A stretch of DNA of 9,564 nucleotides from Methanobacteriota archaeon (GTDB lineage Archaea; Thermoplasmatota; Thermoplasmata; RBG-16-68-12): NCBI GenBank assembly GCA_005878995.1, contig VBME01000103.1, positions 1 to 9,564 of the forward strand, in the 5' to 3' direction. A program made the position numbers and the translations under genes. This document shows, piece after piece, positions 2,127 to 9,564 of this stretch. A model generated the notes under the pieces. It saw only the letters and a list, made by a program, of their open reading frames with translations. It ran no database searches and was not told where the DNA came from. How positions within the stretch are numbered: position 1 is the stretch's first letter; every line of letters starts with the position of its first letter.

Positions 2127-3647
2127 ATGATTTCCCTCGACGGACGCTCGTTGGACTTGGACGATGTCGCCGCCGTCGCCCGCCGGGGGGAGCGCGTCCG
2201 GCTCATGGCCGCGGCGGCCCGTCGCGTCGAGGCGAACCGACGGGCGCTGGAGAGATCGATCTCGGAGGGCGCGGTCGCGTACGGAATCACGACGGGATTC
2301 GGGGAACTCGCGAACGTCGCGATCCCGGAAGCCGACGTCCGGAAGCTGCAGCTGAATCTCCTTCGGAGTCACGCGGTCGGCCAAGGCGAACCGGTTCGGA
2401 CGGATGAGGCGCGTGCCTCGATCTTGCTGCGCGCGAACACGCTGGCCCTCGGCCGTTCCGGCGTCCGAAAGGTCCTCGTGGCGCGCCTGCTTGATCTCCT
2501 GAATCGCCGCGTGCATCCCGTGATTCCGTCCCGCGGGTCCCTTGGAGCCAGTGGAGACTTGGCGCCGCTCGCCCATCTCGGGCTCGTCCTCGTCGGAGAA
2601 GGCCGAGCCGAATATCGAGGTCGCACCTTCGCCGGGAGGGAGGCGCTGCGACGGGCCGGGGTCGCGCCGCTGGTCCTCGAGTCGAAGGAGGGTCTGGCGA
2701 TCATCAACGGGACCTCGGTCATGGCCGGCGTCGGGGCGCTCGCGGTGCACGACGGCTTGCGGTTGCTCAAGGACGCGCAGGTCGCCGCGTCGATCGCGTT
2801 CGAGGCGCTCCGCGGCTCTCCGAAGCCGTACGACGACCGACTCGTCGTCTTGAAACCGCAGGCCGGCGTCCGGGACGTCGCTGCGAACATGCGACGCCTC
2901 CTTCGGCGCAGCGAGATCATCCCGTCGCATCGAGGGCCGCACAAGGTCCAGGATCCGTATACGCTCCGGTGCATCCCACAGGTCCTCGGAGCGTGCCGCG
3001 CTGCGTTGGACACCGCGGCCACCGTGGTCCGAATCGAGATGAACTCGGCCACGGACAATCCACTCATCCTCCCGGACGGCCGGAGCGTGAGCGGCGGGAA
3101 CTTTCATGGGCAGGCGGTCGCCATGGCCCTGGACCACGTGGCGCTCGCCATGGCCGTCCTCGCGGGGTTCACGGAGCGCCGGATCGCGCGGCTCGTCGAC
3201 TCGCGCCTGAGTGAGCTCCCGCCGTTCCTCACGGAGAAGTCGGGCCTGAACTCCGGGATGATGATCCTCCAGTACGTCGCCGCGGGCTATGCGAGCGACA
3301 ACAAGGTCCTCGCCCACCCCGCGTCCGCGGACTCGATCCCGACGTCGGCGAACCAGGAGGACTTCGTGCCGATGGGCATGTCGGCCGCGTGCAAGGCCCG
3401 CGAGGCGATCGAGAACGCGGCACATGTCGTCGCGATGGAGTACCTCGCGGCGGCCCAGGGACTCGAGTTTCTCCAGCCGCTGAGGCCGGGCGTCGGTCCG
3501 CGGGCAGCCTACGCGCGGATTCGCGGATCGATTCCCCGCCTCGTCGACGACCGGTCGCTCGCGGGGGACGTCGACCGGATCCTTGGATGGATGAAGGACG
3601 GGGCCCTCGTGGCCGCCGCCGAAGCCGCTTCGGGCGGACTCGCCTAG
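2127..3647 (+). CDS. hutH: Histidine ammonia-lyase
   Basis: Removes ammonia from L-histidine to give trans-urocanate, the first step of histidine breakdown; cytosolic homotetramer. At 506 residues it has normal full length. The GSLGASGDLAPL motif (137-148) supplies Ala141-Ser142-Gly143, which cyclise to the MIO cofactor. Active-site residues known from Pseudomonas HutH line up: Tyr52, Ser81-His82 (the histidine-specific pair, against His-Leu or Phe-Leu in tyrosine and phenylalanine lyases), Asn194, Gln275/Tyr278/Arg281 in QDPYTLR, Phe326 in GNFHGQ, and Glu411 in NQEDF. These make histidine the likely substrate. One departure is F-V-P after QED (413-415), where many HutH enzymes have H-V-S. 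The ATG at 2127 lies just after the shared TATA element, with no clear Shine-Dalgarno, so near-leaderless expression is likely. No hutU, hutI or transporter is adjacent, so the rest of the pathway must lie elsewhere or be absent. Confidence 0.95.
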   Translation: MISLDGRSLDLDDVAAVARRGERVRLMAAAARRVEANRRALERSISEGAVAYGITTGFGELANVAIPEADVRKLQLNLLRSHAVGQGEPVRTDEARASILLRANTLALGRSGVRKVLVARLLDLLNRRVHPVIPSRGSLGASGDLAPLAHLGLVLVGEGRAEYRGRTFAGREALRRAGVAPLVLESKEGLAIINGTSVMAGVGALAVHDGLRLLKDAQVAASIAFEALRGSPKPYDDRLVVLKPQAGVRDVAANMRRLLRRSEIIPSHRGPHKVQDPYTLRCIPQVLGACRAALDTAATVVRIEMNSATDNPLILPDGRSVSGGNFHGQAVAMALDHVALAMAVLAGFTERRIARLVDSRLSELPPFLTEKSGLNSGMMILQYVAAGYASDNKVLAHPASADSIPTSANQEDFVPMGMSAACKAREAIENAAHVVAMEYLAAAQGLEFLQPLRPGVGPRAAYARIRGSIPRLVDDRSLAGDVDRILGWMKDGALVAAAEAASGGLA

Positions 3648-6600
3648 TCCCTCGCCCCTTGGAGGGAGCGGAAACAGGCGGGACAGCGACCGACCCGAGT
3701 GGCACAGAGTTCGTGGAAGTCGCGACCGCAGCCGCAGCGGGTGACCTTGAAGCCTCTCTTGATGAGGCCCTTGCAGATCGGGCAACGGCTCTCGAGGTCC
3801 GCGACGATGCGTTTCGCCTTCTCCTGCACGAGCTCGGAGACGTCGACCTGGGCGATCATCTCCTGCGTGTACTCTTTGCCGTCGAAGGCGCGGTGGGAGA
3901 TGACCTGGATCGCGAGGGGCACGGACCCGGAGGCGGTCATCTTGAGCCGCAGCTTGACGGCTTCCGAGCCGTTGGCCGGCACGGCGGCGACATCCGTCAG
4001 ACCCTCGGTCTCTGCGTCGCCGACAATCCGAACCCGGACATCCTTCGCGAGTCCCTTCCCGATGTTCTCGATGGTCAGGGTCGCATCGGCCCACTCATTC
4101 ACGCGCGTCGGACCGACATCGATGTACGCCCTCATGCTCGGCGCGAACGCCTCGTTCGCCTCCCAGGCGGTCCGATAGGCTTCCTCCGCCGCCTTGATCG
4201 CCTCGGGGAAATCGGACTTCCGGAGTTGCATCGCCTGCCCGAGCTTCCCCTCGGCGGCTTTCATGTCGATCCCGAATTTGCGTCCGTTTCGAATCGTGGT
4301 TTCCACCTTGAACGTGAGATCGATGAATCGCTTCTCGACGACCTTCGCGGATTCGACGCGCTCTAACGCGCCCTCAACGACGGAGACCGCCTTCTCGAAT
4401 TCCCCCTGTTGCATCTGCTCGTTCGCCTGTCGCAAGAGGGCCTCGGCATCCCGAGCATCGGAGCCGAGCTTCTTCGCGTGGGCGACGTTCGCCGCGGCCT
4501 CCTGAATCGCGCGGTTCAGCTTGGCGCCCAACGCCTTCTCGGCCGAATCCCGCCCGTCGCGGATGCTCGCCCACGCTTCCGGGAAGTTCTCGGCTTCGAC
4601 CTGAGCCCGTGCCTCGGAGAACCGGTTCAGCAAGGGGGTCGGGTCGACGTCCATCTTCCGACAGGTCGCAACGAGCGTCTCTCCCTTCGCGAGTTCCTCT
4701 TGGAGGCGGGACCGGAGGACTCCGAGACCCCAATCAAGACTGCCCGCGAAAGCCGATCGCGCGCGTCCGACCTCGCCGGCTTCAAGGGCTGTCTCCCCTT
4801 CTTGGAAGAATTTCTCGAACTTGGCTGCGTCCGCGCGGACCTCGTACGCCGTCTGGAGGAGTTTCTGCGCACGGTCTCGGACCTCCTGCGTCTCTTCGAG
4901 CAGAATCCGGAGATCCGCGATCGCATCCGATGCGCGGACCGCCGTGTCGAGCGCCCGCACAAAGTCGGCTTCGTCAAACATCTTGCGGGCGTCCGAAACG
5001 AGCCGGGTTACTTCCGTCGACCCGTTCCCCATTGATCGGAGCTTGCGCTCGACGGTCTCGACGGCCTGCCGGGCCATCGCCTGCTGGAGACCGACCCGCT
5101 CCGCCTCGGCCTCGCTCTGCTGCGCGGTCGCGATTGCTTGGCGGTACTTCTTGGCTCGGAAGAAATCGCGGGCCCGTTCAAAGAGCCGCTCCGCGGAGCG
5201 CGTGTCGGTCCCTTCGATCCGCGCCCGCATGAGGTTCTCCTCGAACCCTCGCATCATCGAGGAGATCTCCCGGTCCCGTTCCTTCGTCGCCTCGGCTTCC
5301 GCCTGGGCCGCGTCGTCGAGGGCCTCGTCGAACTGACCCATCTTGTATGCCCGGTCCGCCTTCTCGAGCCATCCGGTGGTCGTTGGCATTGACAGGTTCA
5401 TCGCATCCGCATCGGCGACGATTTCCTTCAAGCGACGGAGGGCCGTCGTGGCCTCGTCTCCCTGTCGTTTCAGGAGATCCAGCTGCTCCCTCAGTTTGAT
5501 TGTGAGGTCAGCGGCTCGGTCGAGTTCCCCCGCGGCGAGATGTTGACGCGCGCGGATAATCGCGTCGCTCGACTGGGCGAGGTTTACACCATCGACCGAA
5601 CCGAGGATCCGCTCCGCCGAAGCGAGGGACGACGTGAGCTTTTCTTGGATGAGGGCGGTGAACTCGTCTTCCGTCCGTTGTGCGAGGGCGAGCGCCTTCT
5701 CGTAGTCCTTTCCTTTCATCGCCTCTTTGGCGTCGCCGAAGACCTCGCGGAGATGCGGGGCATCGATCCCAACTTTCGCCGCCAATTCGAGCCTTCCCCG
5801 GGAGGAAAGGATCTTCTGAGCCGAGGAATAGAGGACCGTGAGCTTGTCTGTCTCCGCCCGGGCCACGGAGGCGAGCTGGAGGGCCCGCTCGTAGTCAAGC
5901 CGCTCGAACGCCTTCTTCGCGTCGACGAGCATCTCGACGACCTTCGACACATCGACGTTGCGCTTCTTCGCCTCCGCGACGAACGCCGCGGCGCTCGCAA
6001 TCGCGTTGAAGGCCTGTCGGTGCAGCGCCGTCGCCTTGCTCGCCCGGTCGTTCCCCTCGTTCAGGAGGCGAAGGCCCTCGTGATAGTTCTGTACCCCGAA
6101 CGCGAGCCGAGCCCGCCGGACGAGGTCCGACATCTCATCCACGTCGATCCTGAGTCCCTGAGCCGTGGCGATGCGGCCCCGCACAAGTCCGCTGAGTTCC
6201 TCGACACATCCCGCGAGCGCCCCTGTCGCCTTCTCCCGGGCCGTGATGATTTCCCCTGCACGGCCTCCCGCGAGGAATCCGTTCAGCTGGCGGTGGACGA
6301 TTTCGAGCGAAGCGACGTTCGCCCCGAGGTCTACCCCCATCCGAACGGCGACCGCAAGGTCCCCGACGATTTCTTCCGCATTGGTCCGGATGCGTCCCTC
6401 GATGAATTTCTCGCCTTCGCCGATTGCCTTGAACGCGCCTTCGAAGTCCCGCGAGCCGCTCGACGCATCGGCGCGGTTCACGAGGGCCTTCAGGCTCGAG
6501 CCGTCGTCCCCGAGGTGAGGGATCGAACTCCGGAGGATTGCGAGCCGTGCGGTCGCGTGATCGGCAAGGAGTCTCTCGGTCTCCGTCTCGACGTCGGCCG

Positions 6601-8131
6601 CGAGACGAAGGGCCTTCCGGTGCTCGTTGGCCTTCGTGGCGACGATCGCGTCTTGGAGGAGCTTCGACGGGCCCGACACGTCCACCCCGTTCTGCTCCGC
6701 AAGGGTGAGGACGAACTCCCCGCGTTCCAGGGACTGCATGACCCGCTCTCGCTCGGTCTTCCGTAGCTCGTCCATCGCGCCGTCCACGGCCTGCTCGACG
6801 TCGACGAGATTTCGATCCTGGTATGCCTGCCGGGCCGTCTCCGCGAGCTTCCGGGCGCGCGTGGTCTGAACGCCAAACGCCTCGGCTTCGGCGAACGAAC
6901 GGTGGACCTCTTTGAGTCGGCCCTCGACTTTTCGATAGCTTTCGAGGATCTGGTCGACCCCTGTGTCCGCACGTTTCGCCGAGTCAATCGCTTCTCGAAA
7001 GGCGCCTCGTTTGACCGCCTCCCGGGCGTTGTTCAGGTCCTCCATCGGACCCTTGAGGTCGATGTCCATGTTCGCCGCGGCCATGAACTTCTCGCGGGAC
7101 GCGCCGATCACCGCGACGACCCGGCGGAACTGGGCCTGTTGAATCGCCTGGAATCCCTGTTTCGCAAGGGCCGCGCCATCGCGGTAGTTCCCTTTCTTAA
7201 TCTCGGCCTCCGCCCGGTCGAAGGACTCCTGGGCGGCCGATGGATCCGCGCCCATGGCGCGGGCTTCTTGGGTGAATTTCGAGAAGTCGCCGGCTTTGCC
7301 ATCCAGCGACCGCTGAAGGGCCTTCTCCGATTCTGCACGGCTTTGGCGAACCGCGTTTTTCGCCTTCTCGAATTCGAGGTTTCCGATGTCGCCGCGGGCC
7401 CGTTCGATCAGGGCCAAGGCTTTCGTCGTGTCGGCGCCGAGCTCCGCCGCGGTCCGAACGAGGTCCTCCGCGTCCCGGATCTCCCGGTTCACCGCGGAGG
7501 TCATGTCGTCCTTGATCGACTCGAACCCTTCATTGGTGAAATCGAGTGCACTCTGGAAGTCGTTGTTCTCCATGGCGGTCCGAGCCCGGGAGAGCAGGTC
7601 TTCAATCGGCCCGACTTCCCGACTGAGATTCTTTGCGGAGAGGATGAGCGACTGTACCTTTGAGAACGAGGACGACAGGTGCTCTTGGAGGGCCTTTTCG
7701 CTCCGTTTCCACGCTTTCTTCGCCAGATCGATCGCGGTTCCGAGGTCCTCGGACGCGAGTGCGCCCTCCGCTTTGGCGAGCGCCGTCTCCATTTCCGCGA
7801 CATCTGCCCCCACGCTCTTGGCCAGTCGTCCAAGCGCCGCGCTCGAATCGACGATCGCACGGGCTCGATCCCGATAGATTCGCTTCCCGCGCTCGAGCGC
7901 TTCGCCGGCCTTGTCAACGGCCACCTTGTAATCCTTTGCCGCGAGGGCGCCGTTCGCTTCCGCGAGGGGCTTCTCCGCGTCGACGACAGTCGCGTCCATC
8001 CGACGCGCTTGGTCGATGATGTCTTGAGCCGCCTTGATGCCTTCCTCGGCTGCCTGGCGTGTCCGAGCGGTCTCCTTGACCCTCTCCTCAAGCTGCCTGC
8101 GCAGCTGACTGTCCCGCAAGTATCCGCTCAA
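3644..8131 (-). CDS. Giant helical-repeat protein with beta-sandwich-like domain and C-terminal RING/PHD-like zinc finger
   Basis: I do not recognise this 1495-residue protein as a named family. Residues 1 to about 1330 are almost entirely alpha-helical, rich in Ala, Glu, Arg, Lys and Asp, and consist of about 21 diverged copies of a 62-residue unit resembling paired TPR helices. Residues about 1333-1432 look like a CARDB/Ig-type beta-sandwich (TLTIENIGKGLAKDVRVRIVGD). Residues 1450-1486 are an eight-ligand zinc finger. There is no signal peptide or membrane segment, so it should be cytosolic: a long scaffold with a binding or ubiquitin-ligase-like tip. The start is uncertain: TTG at 8131 is the most upstream start I can see and fits the promoter at 8210-8218. 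Another TTG lies at residue 5, and the first ATG is at residue 45, within repeat 1. It follows scpAB on the same strand after 177 bases, apparently with its own promoter, and its stop overlaps that of hutH. Gene reality is near certain from repeat periodicity; function is unknown. Confidence 0.9.
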   Translation of the reverse strand: MSGYLRDSQLRRQLEERVKETARTRQAAEEGIKAAQDIIDQARRMDATVVDAEKPLAEANGALAAKDYKVAVDKAGEALERGKRIYRDRARAIVDSSAALGRLAKSVGADVAEMETALAKAEGALASEDLGTAIDLAKKAWKRSEKALQEHLSSSFSKVQSLILSAKNLSREVGPIEDLLSRARTAMENNDFQSALDFTNEGFESIKDDMTSAVNREIRDAEDLVRTAAELGADTTKALALIERARGDIGNLEFEKAKNAVRQSRAESEKALQRSLDGKAGDFSKFTQEARAMGADPSAAQESFDRAEAEIKKGNYRDGAALAKQGFQAIQQAQFRRVVAVIGASREKFMAAANMDIDLKGPMEDLNNAREAVKRGAFREAIDSAKRADTGVDQILESYRKVEGRLKEVHRSFAEAEAFGVQTTRARKLAETARQAYQDRNLVDVEQAVDGAMDELRKTERERVMQSLERGEFVLTLAEQNGVDVSGPSKLLQDAIVATKANEHRKALRLAADVETETERLLADHATARLAILRSSIPHLGDDGSSLKALVNRADASSGSRDFEGAFKAIGEGEKFIEGRIRTNAEEIVGDLAVAVRMGVDLGANVASLEIVHRQLNGFLAGGRAGEIITAREKATGALAGCVEELSGLVRGRIATAQGLRIDVDEMSDLVRRARLAFGVQNYHEGLRLLNEGNDRASKATALHRQAFNAIASAAAFVAEAKKRNVDVSKVVEMLVDAKKAFERLDYERALQLASVARAETDKLTVLYSSAQKILSSRGRLELAAKVGIDAPHLREVFGDAKEAMKGKDYEKALALAQRTEDEFTALIQEKLTSSLASAERILGSVDGVNLAQSSDAIIRARQHLAAGELDRAADLTIKLREQLDLLKRQGDEATTALRRLKEIVADADAMNLSMPTTTGWLEKADRAYKMGQFDEALDDAAQAEAEATKERDREISSMMRGFEENLMRARIEGTDTRSAERLFERARDFFRAKKYRQAIATAQQSEAEAERVGLQQAMARQAVETVERKLRSMGNGSTEVTRLVSDARKMFDEADFVRALDTAVRASDAIADLRILLEETQEVRDRAQKLLQTAYEVRADAAKFEKFFQEGETALEAGEVGRARSAFAGSLDWGLGVLRSRLQEELAKGETLVATCRKMDVDPTPLLNRFSEARAQVEAENFPEAWASIRDGRDSAEKALGAKLNRAIQEAAANVAHAKKLGSDARDAEALLRQANEQMQQGEFEKAVSVVEGALERVESAKVVEKRFIDLTFKVETTIRNGRKFGIDMKAAEGKLGQAMQLRKSDFPEAIKAAEEAYRTAWEANEAFAPSMRAYIDVGPTRVNEWADATLTIENIGKGLAKDVRVRIVGDAETEGLTDVAAVPANGSEAVKLRLKMTASGSVPLAIQVISHRAFDGKEYTQEMIAQVDVSELVQEKAKRIVADLESRCPICKGLIKRGFKVTRCGCGRDFHELCATRVGRCPACFRSLQGARD
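3674..3784 (-). other. C4HC3 RING/PHD-like zinc-finger domain of the giant protein
   Basis: Ligands are Cys1450, Cys1453, Cys1466, Cys1468, His1473, Cys1476, Cys1483 and Cys1486, giving C-x2-C-x12-C-x1-C-x4-H-x2-C-x6-C-x2-C. Eight ligands in four pairs suggest cross-braced binding of two zincs. The order Cys4-His-Cys3 is that of PHD and RING-variant fingers. The local segment CGRDFHELC and the closing CPAC resemble RING fingers. The spacing between pairs three and four (6) is short. Only two other cysteines stand out in the rest of the chain, so the cluster is deliberate. Zinc binding is well supported; ligase activity is only a possibility. Confidence 0.75.
3836..4135 (-). other. CARDB/Ig-like beta-sandwich domain of the giant protein
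   Basis: Residues about 1333-1432 break from the helical pattern. Alternating hydrophobics suggest beta strands: RAYIDVG, ATLTIENIG, DVRVRIVGD, AVKLRLKMT, PLAIQVIS and EMIAQVDVS. The N-I-G-K-G-x-A-x-D-V step is typical of CARDB-type adhesion/binding domains, which in archaea mostly sit on secreted or surface proteins. Here it is in a chain with no export signal, between the helical rod and the zinc finger. Fold assignment is by pattern only. Confidence 0.5.
4136..8131 (-). repeat. About 21 tandem 62-residue (186-base) helical repeats encoded in the giant protein
   Basis: Each unit has a helix, a short loop often with G-[AVI]-D, a helix ending A-x-x-A, then an acidic-aromatic corner ([DEN]-[FYL]-x-x-A) and a long helix into the next unit. 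The corner's first residue falls at 67, 129, 191, 253, 315, 377, 441, 503, 562, 624, 682, 746, 809, 869, 933, 995, 1056, 1120, 1182, 1244 and 1307. The first five intervals are exactly 62, all lie between 58 and 64, and the mean is 62.0. Copies are strongly diverged (for example KDYKVAVDKAGEAL against GEFEKAVSVVEGAL), so no long nucleotide repeats remain. This is the spacing I counted; helix boundaries are inferred. Confidence 0.85.
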
Positions 8132-8209: not shown

Positions 8210-8218
8210 CTTATAAAC
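8210..8218 (-). promoter_or_regulatory. TATA box for the giant repeat-protein gene
   Basis: The minus strand reads GTTTATAAG, an isolated match to an archaeal TATA element. It predicts transcription from about 8188, giving a leader of about 57 bases to the TTG at 8131. It suggests the gene is transcribed apart from scpAB, though read-through cannot be excluded because I see no U-rich terminator after scpB. Confidence 0.55.
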
Positions 8219-8308: not shown

Positions 8309-8926
8309 TCACTCGGTCGCCGCGGGCGTCGGCGGGGCGGGAAGGCCCGGGACCACCGTTTCGACGGGACTCGGCAGGGACGCTTCGCGAGCCTCATCGG
8401 ACGACGTCGGGTCCGAGTGCTCCTTGTAGGGCACGCCCGCCTTCTGCGCCATGAGCTTCCGGATCCCTTCCCGGTCCGTCGACTTGAGCCCGAAGAACTC
8501 CGCGAAGTATCGGGTGGTCGCGAGGGAGAGCGATCGTCCCGACGGCTTGCGCGAGATGAGCCCGAGCTCCTCGAGGGCTTTCGTGTGCTCGTAGACCTTC
8601 GCCCCGATCATGTCGAAGAGGTCGCTCTGGAGGATCGGCTGGTGGTATGCGATGAGCGCGGCCGTCTTCAACACGTCCCGGTCGATTTCCGGCGGCGCGA
8701 ACGAACGGGCACGTTCCGCGTACTCGGACCGAATCTGCATCGTCCACTTCGTGCCGATCTGAGTGACTTCGATCGCACTGTCCCGCTGCGTGTATTCTCG
8801 GGCGATGGCTCGGAGGTGGTCCCGAATCCTCTCGGGATCCACTCGCGTGGTCCGGGCGAGTTCGTCCACGGTCAGGGGCCGGCCCGCGCTGTACAAGGCG
8901 GCCTCCACGATGGCGCGCTCGTTCAT
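8309..8926 (-). CDS. scpB: Segregation and condensation protein B
   Basis: A 205-residue subunit of the SMC-ScpA-ScpB condensin, which organises and helps separate replicated chromosomes; ScpB dimers bind the middle of ScpA. Two winged-helix units are visible, about 1-68 (MNERAIVEAALYSAGRPLTVDELA) and 80-150. The second carries the family signature AALIAYHQPILQSDLFDMIG (89-108), followed by a recognition-helix region EHTKALEELGLI and RSLSLATTRYFAEFFGL (131-147). The last 35 residues are rich in Pro, Ser, Glu and Ala and are probably disordered. The ATG at 8926 is chosen because it overlaps the scpA stop as ATGA and has GGGGAGG seven bases upstream. An upstream extension in the same frame has no family similarity. 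It is translationally coupled to scpA and was probably transcribed from a promoter beyond the right edge. Confidence 0.93.
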   Translation of the reverse strand: MNERAIVEAALYSAGRPLTVDELARTTRVDPERIRDHLRAIAREYTQRDSAIEVTQIGTKWTMQIRSEYAERARSFAPPEIDRDVLKTAALIAYHQPILQSDLFDMIGAKVYEHTKALEELGLISRKPSGRSLSLATTRYFAEFFGLKSTDREGIRKLMAQKAGVPYKEHSDPTSSDEAREASLPSPVETVVPGLPAPPTPAATE

Positions 8927-9564
8927 TCGCTCGCCTCCCCAGAGGCCTCGGGCCTCGGTCCGAGCGCCGGGATCGCCAAGAGCTCCTCCAACGGCAGGTC
9001 CGTCTTCATCGACAACCGCTTCACGAGGTCTTCTCCATGGACCTTTTGATGGAAATTCGGCGCGAACTTCCGAATCGCCTGTTCCCGGAGGGCGTTCAGT
9101 TGGAGCTGGATTTCCGCCTCCCGACGGGCTTCGTCGAATGCATCCATCAGTTCCATGAGGGTCACGGCGCGTCGGCCCTCCCGGCGAATCGCCTCGGTCA
9201 GGGGCGTCGCGGTGCCCGCGAGGACCACCTGGTTGTAGTCCAAGTCCGCCGGATCCCGGAACATGTCGAGGTCCCAGCCATCGACCTCGGGCTCCGGCTG
9301 CGGCGGCATCGCGTCGAGGAGGACCTTGTCGCTTTGCATCTTCAGGATCGACCAGGCGAGGAAGACGAGCTTCCCCGCCGTGACGAAGTTCACCGCGCCG
9401 TCCTTCTTCACCTTGTCCATGAAGAGCTTCGTGAACTGGACGAGGTTGATTTCCCACGGGTCCAGGTGCCGCTCGAGGACGAGCTCGAACGCCGCGACGA
9501 TCGATTTCTCAAAGGGATCCCGGACCGCGACGTGCATCCCCTGGTCGATCTCGTTCAGCATCCC
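8923..9564 (-). CDS. scpA: Segregation and condensation protein A (partial or complete; reaches the right edge)
   Basis: The kleisin of the SMC complex, bridging the SMC heads and binding ScpB. Counting from an ATG at 9561, 212 residues are seen. The N-terminal kleisin signature is RDPFEKSIVAAFELVLERHLDPWEINLVQFT, where the family has its DPWxI motif, followed by GKLVFLAWSILKMQSDKVLL, the usual hydrophobic helix. The middle (TLMELMDAFDEARREAE) fits the ScpB-binding region. The chain then ends in a helical stretch (KVHGEDLVKRLSMK) and a Pro/Glu-rich tail, without the C-terminal winged-helix signature (FLALLEL and a Q-x-x-x-F near the end) normally used to touch the SMC head. The ATG at 9561 may be the real start, because the conserved region begins about 15 residues later, but the frame is still open at the edge, so the gene may extend further. 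Confidence 0.85.
   Translation of the reverse strand, partial: GMLNEIDQGMHVAVRDPFEKSIVAAFELVLERHLDPWEINLVQFTKLFMDKVKKDGAVNFVTAGKLVFLAWSILKMQSDKVLLDAMPPQPEPEVDGWDLDMFRDPADLDYNQVVLAGTATPLTEAIRREGRRAVTLMELMDAFDEARREAEIQLQLNALREQAIRKFAPNFHQKVHGEDLVKRLSMKTDLPLEELLAIPALGPRPEASGEASE
8934..8940 (-). promoter_or_regulatory. Shine-Dalgarno of scpB, inside the scpA end
   Basis: The minus strand reads GGGGAGG, seven bases before the ATG at 8926. It lies within the last codons of scpA and fixes the scpB start. Together with the ATGA overlap it indicates translational coupling. Confidence 0.65.

What the first reader, a model, noticed from the sequence alone, without database searches (positions are those of the whole stretch)
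3644..8131. A 1495-residue archaeal protein made of about 21 near-perfectly spaced 62-residue helical repeats, ending in a RING-like finger
The [DEN]-[FYL]-x-x-A corner recurs 21 times with a mean spacing of 62.0 residues, the first five intervals being exactly 62. Such regularity over 1300 residues, with heavily diverged copies, implies an old, structurally constrained solenoid or rod rather than recent duplication or a simple coiled coil. I know of no named family with this order (repeat rod, beta-sandwich, C4HC3 finger). If real, it would be a scaffold of great length with a zinc-binding tip, in the cytosol of an archaeon. Function is unknown.
Basis: partly seen in the sequence, partly recalled or inferred. 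Interest (0 to 1): 0.8.

Follow-up and report, generated by a model that had tools for sequence, protein, structure and literature searches.

The report
Giant fixed-length archaeal rod protein
Some archaea carry an unnamed giant rod-shaped protein of about 21 repeated helical units whose length has hardly changed in evolution, and its gene sits beside chromosome-segregation or cell-division genes in several lineages, so it may be a molecular spacer for these processes.

Summary
The repeat protein is real. A profile built from the first five units finds 15 more in register; I read 21 units, starting at residues 27 to 1268, mean pitch 62.05. AlphaFold2 gives each unit as a 15-residue helix, a short turn and a 39-residue helix shared with the next unit. 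That is the shared-helix rod plan of EzrA, spectrin and Embp, not a TPR superhelix. A CARDB-like beta-sandwich and a C4HC3 finger, its ligands invariant in 34 of 34 aligned sequences, end the chain.

Rod length is nearly locked: no indel in residues 27-1330 in 100 of 102 listed homologues of 1400 aa or more. Collinear relatives occur in other archaeal lineages, some without the finger.

Gene neighbours are the best clue to function. The gene follows smc-scpA-scpB here (scpB within 180 bp in 13 of 16 loci), faces scpB in 4 of 66 genomes of another order, and follows ftsZ in 15 of 17 Aciduliprofundum-like loci.

My reading: a roughly 60-nm cytosolic spacer serving chromosome segregation and division. 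Architecture well supported; role inferred. An undescribed family of a known structural kind.

The parts
3644..8131 (-). Giant rod protein, 1495 aa (called ROD here)
   Evidence: ORF; 176 homologues, 120 listed; of these 102 have 1400 aa or more and 72 have exactly 1495; no Pfam or NCBIfam family over its cut-off
8054..8131 (-). Conserved N-terminal leader, residues 1-26 (MSGYLRDSQLRRQLEE...)
   Evidence: Mean weighted conservation 0.84, the highest segment mean; a similar start in the Methanomassiliicoccales-type and Aciduliprofundum-type relatives
4139..8053 (-). Rod: 21 units of about 62 residues (residues 27-1331)
   Evidence: Profile search, alignment of 17 units, AlphaFold2 models
7559..7684 (-). 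Strongly conserved patch (residues 150-191, unit 3), candidate binding face
   Evidence: Conservation profile over 34 sequences
3836..4135 (-). CARDB-like beta-sandwich (residues 1333-1432)
3674..3784 (-). RING/PHD-like C4HC3 finger, presumed to bind zinc (residues 1450-1486)
   Evidence: All eight ligands invariant in 34 of 34 rows; sub-threshold RING and Prok-RING_1 hits; Prok-RING_1 over cut-off in the Aciduliprofundum-type relative L100
8211..8217 (-). TTTATAA, 86 bp before the start codon, read as a TATA box (promoter reading from general knowledge)
   Evidence: TTTATA at -82 to -87 in 14 of 17 loci including the window; TTTAAA or TTAAAT at that place in 2 more; none in L017
8309..8926 (-). 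ScpB, condensin kite subunit (start approximate)
   Evidence: PF04079 117.4 bits and TIGR00281 90.7 bits, both over cut-off
8923..9564 (-). ScpA, condensin kleisin subunit (cut by the window edge)
   Evidence: No hit for the cut piece itself; its full-length counterpart in L019 (97% identical) matches PF02616 below cut-off, E 0.0014; of five ScpA candidates scanned, L010 and L082 are over the PF02616 cut-off. SMC lies upstream in homologous loci
2127..3647 (+). Histidine ammonia-lyase (hutH), convergent neighbour; context, not part of the proposed system
   Evidence: TIGR01225 618.7 bits, over cut-off; convergent with the rod gene in 21 of 21 loci of the window clade and in L072

Best explanation
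SHOWN: the gene encodes a member of a family of giant rods found in several lineages of one archaeal phylum (Thermoplasmatota, a name I infer from the record titles). In this clade each chain is about 21 tandem 62-residue units, a short helix plus a long helix shared with the next unit, followed by a CARDB-like beta-sandwich and a RING/PHD-like finger. Rod length is almost free of indels.

INFERRED: the rod is a stiff cytosolic spacer about 60 nm long (21 units x about 2.9 nm, scaled from Embp FG-repeats), of the same order as the 47-49 nm SMC arm. Its conserved ends and patches hold partners a set distance apart. In this lineage the likely partner is the SMC-ScpA(B) condensin; in Aciduliprofundum-type archaea it is FtsZ. 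It would work much as EzrA or spectrin does: a scaffold bridging a filament or motor to another cellular structure. The beta-sandwich and finger would be docking modules, not catalysts.
For: Architecture. Length: no indel in residues 27-1330 in 100 of 102 listed homologues of 1400 aa or more (the 34-row alignment agrees). Indels per 1000 aa in pairs under 65% identity: ROD 0.93 (mean identity 48%), SMC 1.22 (61%), HutH 2.33 (64%), ScpB 14.3 (59%).

Neighbours, window clade: of 21 loci, 16 hold the ROD 5' end; scpB lies upstream on the same strand within 180 bp in 13, at 721 bp in L007, at 1872 bp in L014, and was not found in L013. smc is upstream of scpB in 13 of these 15; in L006 and L007 the contig starts in scpA.

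Neighbours, second lineage: smc-scpA-scpB converging on ROD in G044, G105 and G293, and scpB converging on it in G360.

Neighbours, third lineage: ftsZ directly upstream on the same strand in 15 of 17 loci with a detectable ROD N-terminus and flank. Four tested are TIGR00065 over cut-off.

Homology of these rods: hhalign E 4.3e-91, 4.9e-63 and 1.3e-48 over 1332-1412 columns.

Scale: an Embp FG-repeat (126 aa) is about 70 A long and six span 34.8 nm (PMC7587433, passages); SMC arm about 47 or 49 nm (abstracts of PMC5344682 and PMC5526789 in the listing).
Against: The smc link is not general: scpB is next to the ROD gene in only 4 of 66 genomes with a rod match in the order of G044, and rods of other lineages sit by CGI-121, Hel308, thiolase and other genes. 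hutH, an amino-acid enzyme, is as constant a neighbour in the window clade (21 of 21), so constant adjacency alone proves little. The gene has its own conserved TATA-like box, so it need not share the smc transcript. The Aciduliprofundum-type FtsZ is the fifth-scoring of seven FtsZ/tubulin-family matches in G038. Two rods with a detectable N-terminus, L154 and L158 (25% identity), lack ftsZ upstream, and seven further fetched loci showed neither. Two homologues do have internal deletions: P0050 (38 residues) and P0053 (19 residues). Tested archaeal ScpA-ScpB pairs did not bind each other (PMC7055376, passages), so scpB may not mark the condensin itself. No interaction of the rod was tested. 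Rod length is scaled by analogy, not measured. Repeat proteins can align collinearly without strict orthology.
Confidence: 0.5

Rival explanations
1. A general cytosolic scaffold or cytoskeletal strut with no special tie to condensin or FtsZ. The neighbours are lineage-specific accidents kept by slow gene-order change.
For: Neighbours differ among lineages; own TATA-like box; hutH is a neighbour just as constant in the window clade, 21 of 21 loci.
Against: Segregation or division genes recur as neighbours in three lineages and in two orientations. My rough, uncomputed estimate is about 1% per lineage for a chance neighbour from about ten such genes in about 1900.
Confidence: 0.3
2. A TPR-type receptor or co-chaperone: units bind peptides in grooves, the finger recruits partners.
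For: The unit profile matches TPR hairpins over unit positions of about 14-53, mostly designed TPR proteins but also chains named PP5 at E 1.6e-5 and 1.1e-4; one relative is named a TPR protein (P0162).
Against: The second helix is 39 residues and shared with the next unit in the regular units, so a TPR-like groove is not expected; the pitch is 62, not 34; of 17 single units scanned, each of three TPR models matches one at E <= 0.01.
Confidence: 0.1
3. A giant RING-type ubiquitin-like ligase, with the rod as substrate platform.
For: Eight-ligand C4HC3 finger, invariant in 34 of 34; RING E3 domains are the closest finger sequences in the PDB; three genomes with finger-bearing rods (G255, G257, G260) do hold an E2-like PF00179 match.
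Against: No PF00179 match in the 4 genomes of the window clade or the 5 of the Aciduliprofundum type (several are incomplete MAGs). E2 presence does not follow the finger: it is also found in G269 and G172, whose rods lack it, and not in G044, G105, G293, which also lack it. The same finger sits on membrane-type proteins with zinc ribbons.
Confidence: 0.07

Closest known systems
EzrA, the bacterial spectrin-like FtsZ regulator (PMC4243239; abstract and two Results sections read)
   Same: Linear array of helical units whose junctions are continuous helices shared by neighbouring repeats; linked to FtsZ (here by gene adjacency in relatives only).
   Different: EzrA has 5 repeats of about 100 aa and a membrane anchor; here about 21 units of 62 aa and no membrane-like helix. 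PF06160 scores 15.5 bits on the repeat consensus against a cut-off of 39.6.
Ebh/Embp FG-repeat rods of staphylococci (PMC7587433; passages read)
   Different: Those are cell-surface proteins; this is predicted cytosolic, and they were not among the sequence matches seen.
TPR repeats
   Same: Short helix, turn and first half of the long helix resemble a TPR hairpin.
   Different: 62-residue pitch with an extended shared helix instead of 34 residues and a superhelix.
CARDB (PF07705) and Prok-RING_1 (PF14446)
   Same: The C-terminal beta-sandwich and finger resemble these; CARDB is over cut-off in relative L068 and Prok-RING_1 in L100.
   Different: Sub-threshold in the window protein itself; I know of no established role for them in this setting.

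Membership tests
Spectrin/EzrA-type shared-helix rods | Tandem units joined by continuous helices | tested here: met
   39-residue helices shared between neighbouring units in the 1-400 model, pLDDT 90; two later long helices are broken once each. Prediction only
Spectrin/EzrA-type shared-helix rods | Three-helix bundle packing and its handedness | not testable with these tools
Spectrin/EzrA-type shared-helix rods | Repeat of about 100 residues | tested here: not met
   62-residue pitch
EzrA family (PF06160) | Profile match over cut-off | tested here: not met
   Not among hits to the protein; repeat consensus 15.5 of 39.6 bits
EzrA family (PF06160) | N-terminal transmembrane helix | tested here: not met
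   Maximum 19-residue hydropathy 1.27, at residue 588
EzrA family (PF06160) | Direct binding to FtsZ | not testable with these tools
   Only gene adjacency to ftsZ in relatives
Ebh/Embp FG-repeat rods | Fold match of the rod | tested here: inconclusive
TPR | 34-residue two-helix repeat | tested here: not met
   15 + 39 residue helices at 62-residue pitch
Prok-RING_1 (PF14446) | Profile over cut-off | tested here: not met
   11.7 of 29.1 bits in the window protein; 54.9 bits in relative L100
RING/PHD-type fingers | Eight zinc ligands in conserved order | tested here: met
   C4HC3 order, invariant in 34 of 34
RING E3 ligase | E2 partner in the genome | tested here: inconclusive
   0 of 4 genomes of the window clade and 0 of 5 Aciduliprofundum-type, several incomplete; but 3 of 3 other genomes with finger-bearing rods (G255, G257, G260) have a PF00179 match
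CARDB (PF07705) | Profile over cut-off | tested here: not met
   17.5 of 22.7 bits; 27.7 bits in relative L068
SMC-ScpAB complex | Physical subunit of the complex | not testable with these tools
   Only conserved adjacency

The most novel reading that the evidence does not exclude
An archaeal molecular ruler: a length-locked rod of about 60 nm, somewhat longer than the condensin arm, that bridges SMC-ScpA(B) on the nucleoid to the division machinery and so measures or transmits force between chromosome and division site. It would be a spectrin-like cytoskeletal element specific to these archaea.
Probability: 0.15. Interest if true: 0.88.

Novelty: new variant of a known kind. Interest (0 to 1): 0.7.

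Why it matters
I saw no accessory protein of archaeal condensin and no spectrin-like protein of archaea in the listings of the paper searches made (an open-licence library, most papers seen only as listing lines). A giant protein kept at almost one exact length while half its residues change points to a mechanical or measuring role, and the gene neighbours make that testable. If the link holds, it joins chromosome segregation and division in archaea where little is known of either.

Tried and rejected
Simple coiled coil: rejected. The lag-62 signal and the models show helix-turn-helix units, not a heptad rod.

Recent duplication: rejected. The 16 other units aligned are 13-29% identical to the first, and unit number hardly varies in the clade.

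SoxAX-binding protein (NF052674): matched at E 1.2e-5, 25.6 bits against a cut-off of 95; taken as shared helical pattern, not membership.

Leader hairpin before the start codon: suspected by eye, not supported. The consensus fold has 3 pairs and -1.36 kcal/mol.

PDB sequence searches: mainly designed helical or TPR proteins, PP5 and other TPR chains, and RING domains. Fold search of the 1200-residue model returned mostly the beta-sandwich; residues 1-400 alone gave nothing at E <= 0.001. No EzrA or spectrin-repeat chain stood out; 6m3p (AnkG/beta2-spectrin) appears at E 2.3 only.

Distribution: with a combined profile, 96 of 292 sampled genomes of the phylum have some match. By my count of the listing, 32 have one at E <= 5.5e-74 that spans at least 1065 of 1561 profile positions. 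The family is not phylum-wide.

Changes after the self-check: the length claim was first made on 33 homologues that I had picked. One search tested all 102 listed ones of 1400 aa or more and found two internal deletions. The E2 result was first told only for the genomes without a match; G255, G257 and G260 do have one, so the ligase rival was raised from 0.05 to 0.07.

Full report
WHAT IS THERE. The window is archaeal. On the minus strand, scpA (cut by the edge) and scpB are followed, 177 bp later, by a 1495-residue ORF at 3644-8131 that starts with TTG. Convergent to it lies hutH (2127-3647). Then come RNase Z, an HTH-CBS gene and the start of a methionine adenosyltransferase gene; that last name is my own recognition and comes from no call.

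THE REPEATS. A profile seeded with five N-terminal units of 34 homologues finds 15 further segments in register on its first pass, with one double-length step. The iterated set shows 17 good units and 4 weak or partial segments, which I read as 21 units with mean pitch 62.05. Consensus: RAEEALARAEELIAEAKKLGADVTEAEKLLERAREALKAGDFEEALDLAKQAREEAEKALRE. The units are highly diverged.

THE FOLD. AlphaFold2 on residues 1-400 (pLDDT 90, pTM 0.65, 35 sequences) gives short helices of 15 residues at exact 62-residue spacing. Each is followed by a long helix that runs into the next unit: 39 residues in three units, broken once in the next two. The model of residues 296-1495 (pLDDT 83, pTM 0.35) shows the same alternation, with one irregular stretch near 500-607 and a beta-sandwich at 1333-1432. 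The low pTM means that the global curve of the rod is not known. I had no coordinates, so bundle packing and handedness were not checked. A solved Embp FG-repeat (126 aa) of this plan is about 70 A long and six span 34.8 nm (PMC7587433, passages). By analogy 21 units would span about 60 nm.

LENGTH. Of the 120 homologues listed, 102 have 1400 aa or more, and 72 have exactly 1495. Compared one by one with the window protein, 96 of 102 have no indel in residues 1-1330. Four of the six exceptions are 1-2 residues at positions 2-5. Two are internal: P0050 lacks 38 residues near 1085 and P0053 lacks 19 near 734. So 100 of 102 have no indel in residues 27-1330, at identities down to about 46%. As a control on genes of the same loci, pairs under 65% identity have 0.93 indels per 1000 residues for the rod gene, 1.22 for SMC, 2.33 for HutH and 14.3 for ScpB, although the rod pairs are the most diverged. 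SMC arms are known to be length-tuned (PMC5344682, passages).

THE WIDER FAMILY. A1-profile search of 292 genomes of the phylum found matches in 74. I fetched regions for 40 of these genomes; many hold ORFs of about 1350-1625 aa with lag 62 or 126. Profile-profile alignments with three such groups run nearly end to end. One group contains proteins that sources name as Methanomassiliicoccales, and 29 of the 44 proteins found with it have 1441-1445 aa. A second has nearly single-contig genomes, one contig of 1,486,778 bp, a size that I recall as that of Aciduliprofundum boonei; 'Aciduliprofundum-type' rests on that recall. Locus L068 links the window clade and the Methanomassiliicoccales-type group: it has hutH convergent with the rod gene (2.8 kb apart) and also CGI-121, Hel308 and thiolase neighbours. 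The finger is present in the window clade, L068-L070, L088-L091 and the Aciduliprofundum-type loci, and not seen in the 10 Methanomassiliicoccales-type and 9 A5-type ORFs examined.

NEIGHBOURS. In the window clade 16 of 21 loci hold the 5' end of the gene. In 13, scpB ends within 180 bp upstream. It lies at 721 bp in L007 and at 1872 bp in L014 (a Tat-type gene intervenes on the other strand), and was not found within 1993 bp in L013. hutH converges on the gene in 21 of 21, which warns that constant adjacency alone does not show function. In the order of G044 the arrangement with scpB is convergent in 4 of the 66 genomes with a rod match. In the order of G038, 25 loci were examined (20 fetched plus 5 earlier). 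Of these, 17 show a ROD N-terminus with flank and 15 have ftsZ directly upstream on the same strand. The two without, L154 and L158, are the most diverged. L096 is cut at its 5' end; seven loci showed neither gene. Four of the ftsZ genes were tested and are over the TIGR00065 cut-off. A TATA-like box stands at -82 to -87 in 14 of 17 loci, so in the window clade the gene is probably transcribed from its own promoter.

THE FINGER. Eight ligands in C4HC3 order are invariant. The closest PDB sequences are RING domains. An E2 (PF00179) match was absent from 4 of 4 genomes of the window clade and 5 of 5 of the Aciduliprofundum type, but present in G255, G257 and G260, which have finger-bearing rods, and in G269 and G172, whose rods lack the finger. 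So E2 presence does not track the finger. The same finger sits on membrane-type proteins, some directly next to ftsZ. I read it as a docking module favoured in this phylum.

MECHANISM. Shown: the repeats, the near-absence of indels, the C-terminal domains and the neighbours; the rod fold is a confident prediction. Inferred: a stiff cytosolic spacer whose N-terminus and C-terminal modules hold partners apart, serving condensin here and FtsZ in a relative. Not tested: any interaction, localisation or phenotype.

NOVELTY. Scans of Pfam and NCBIfam gave no family over cut-off for the window protein, and sources call it a hypothetical protein where they name it. In the paper searches I saw no description, in an open-licence library and mostly from listing lines. 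The structural kind, shared-helix rods of helical units, is known from EzrA and Embp, so I call it a new variant of a known kind.

Noticed in passing
L108, L110, L111, L112, L114 (and L109, facing): A small protein with the same RING-like finger sits directly beside an ftsZ-like gene (two tested, L108 and L114, are TIGR00065 over cut-off). In L108 it has zinc ribbons after the finger. In L112 the next genes include proteasome alpha, SBDS, Rrp4 and Rrp41, and similar genes follow in other loci.
   Followed up: partly
window 8211-8217 and homologous loci: A TATA-like box at nearly the same distance (-82 to -87) before the rod gene in 14 of 17 loci; in most, the stretch GAGGCAGCGGAGCC recurs before the start codon.
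   Followed up: partly
L088, L089, L090, L091: Even larger relatives (ORFs of 1888-3183 aa, two of them open-ended) with a dominant 126-residue period and the same C-terminal finger.
   Followed up: no
L102-L107: ORFs of about 1750 aa (L107 open-ended at 1353) with a 66-residue instead of 62-residue period.
   Followed up: no
L002, L014 and L015: The rod reading frame appears as two overlapping ORFs in different frames, so it is broken there or misassembled. Described only.
   Followed up: no
L013 and L014: A 545-579 aa gene with a Tat-like signal (SRREFL/SRRDFL, recognised by eye) lies on the opposite strand just upstream of the rod gene; in L014 it separates it from scpB.
   Followed up: no
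L016 (VAYX01000188.1): The contig is binned as Actinobacteria but carries the archaeal rod gene and hutH: probably a binning error.
   Followed up: no
L140 1939-9093 and L142: Further giant ORFs (about 2385 aa) in the same genomes match parts of the rod family; L140's has a borderline CARDB hit, 22.6 of 22.7 bits.
   Followed up: no
21 genomes, G001-G004, G038, G072 and others: Three to eight FtsZ/tubulin-family matches per genome in all 21 genomes searched.
   Followed up: no
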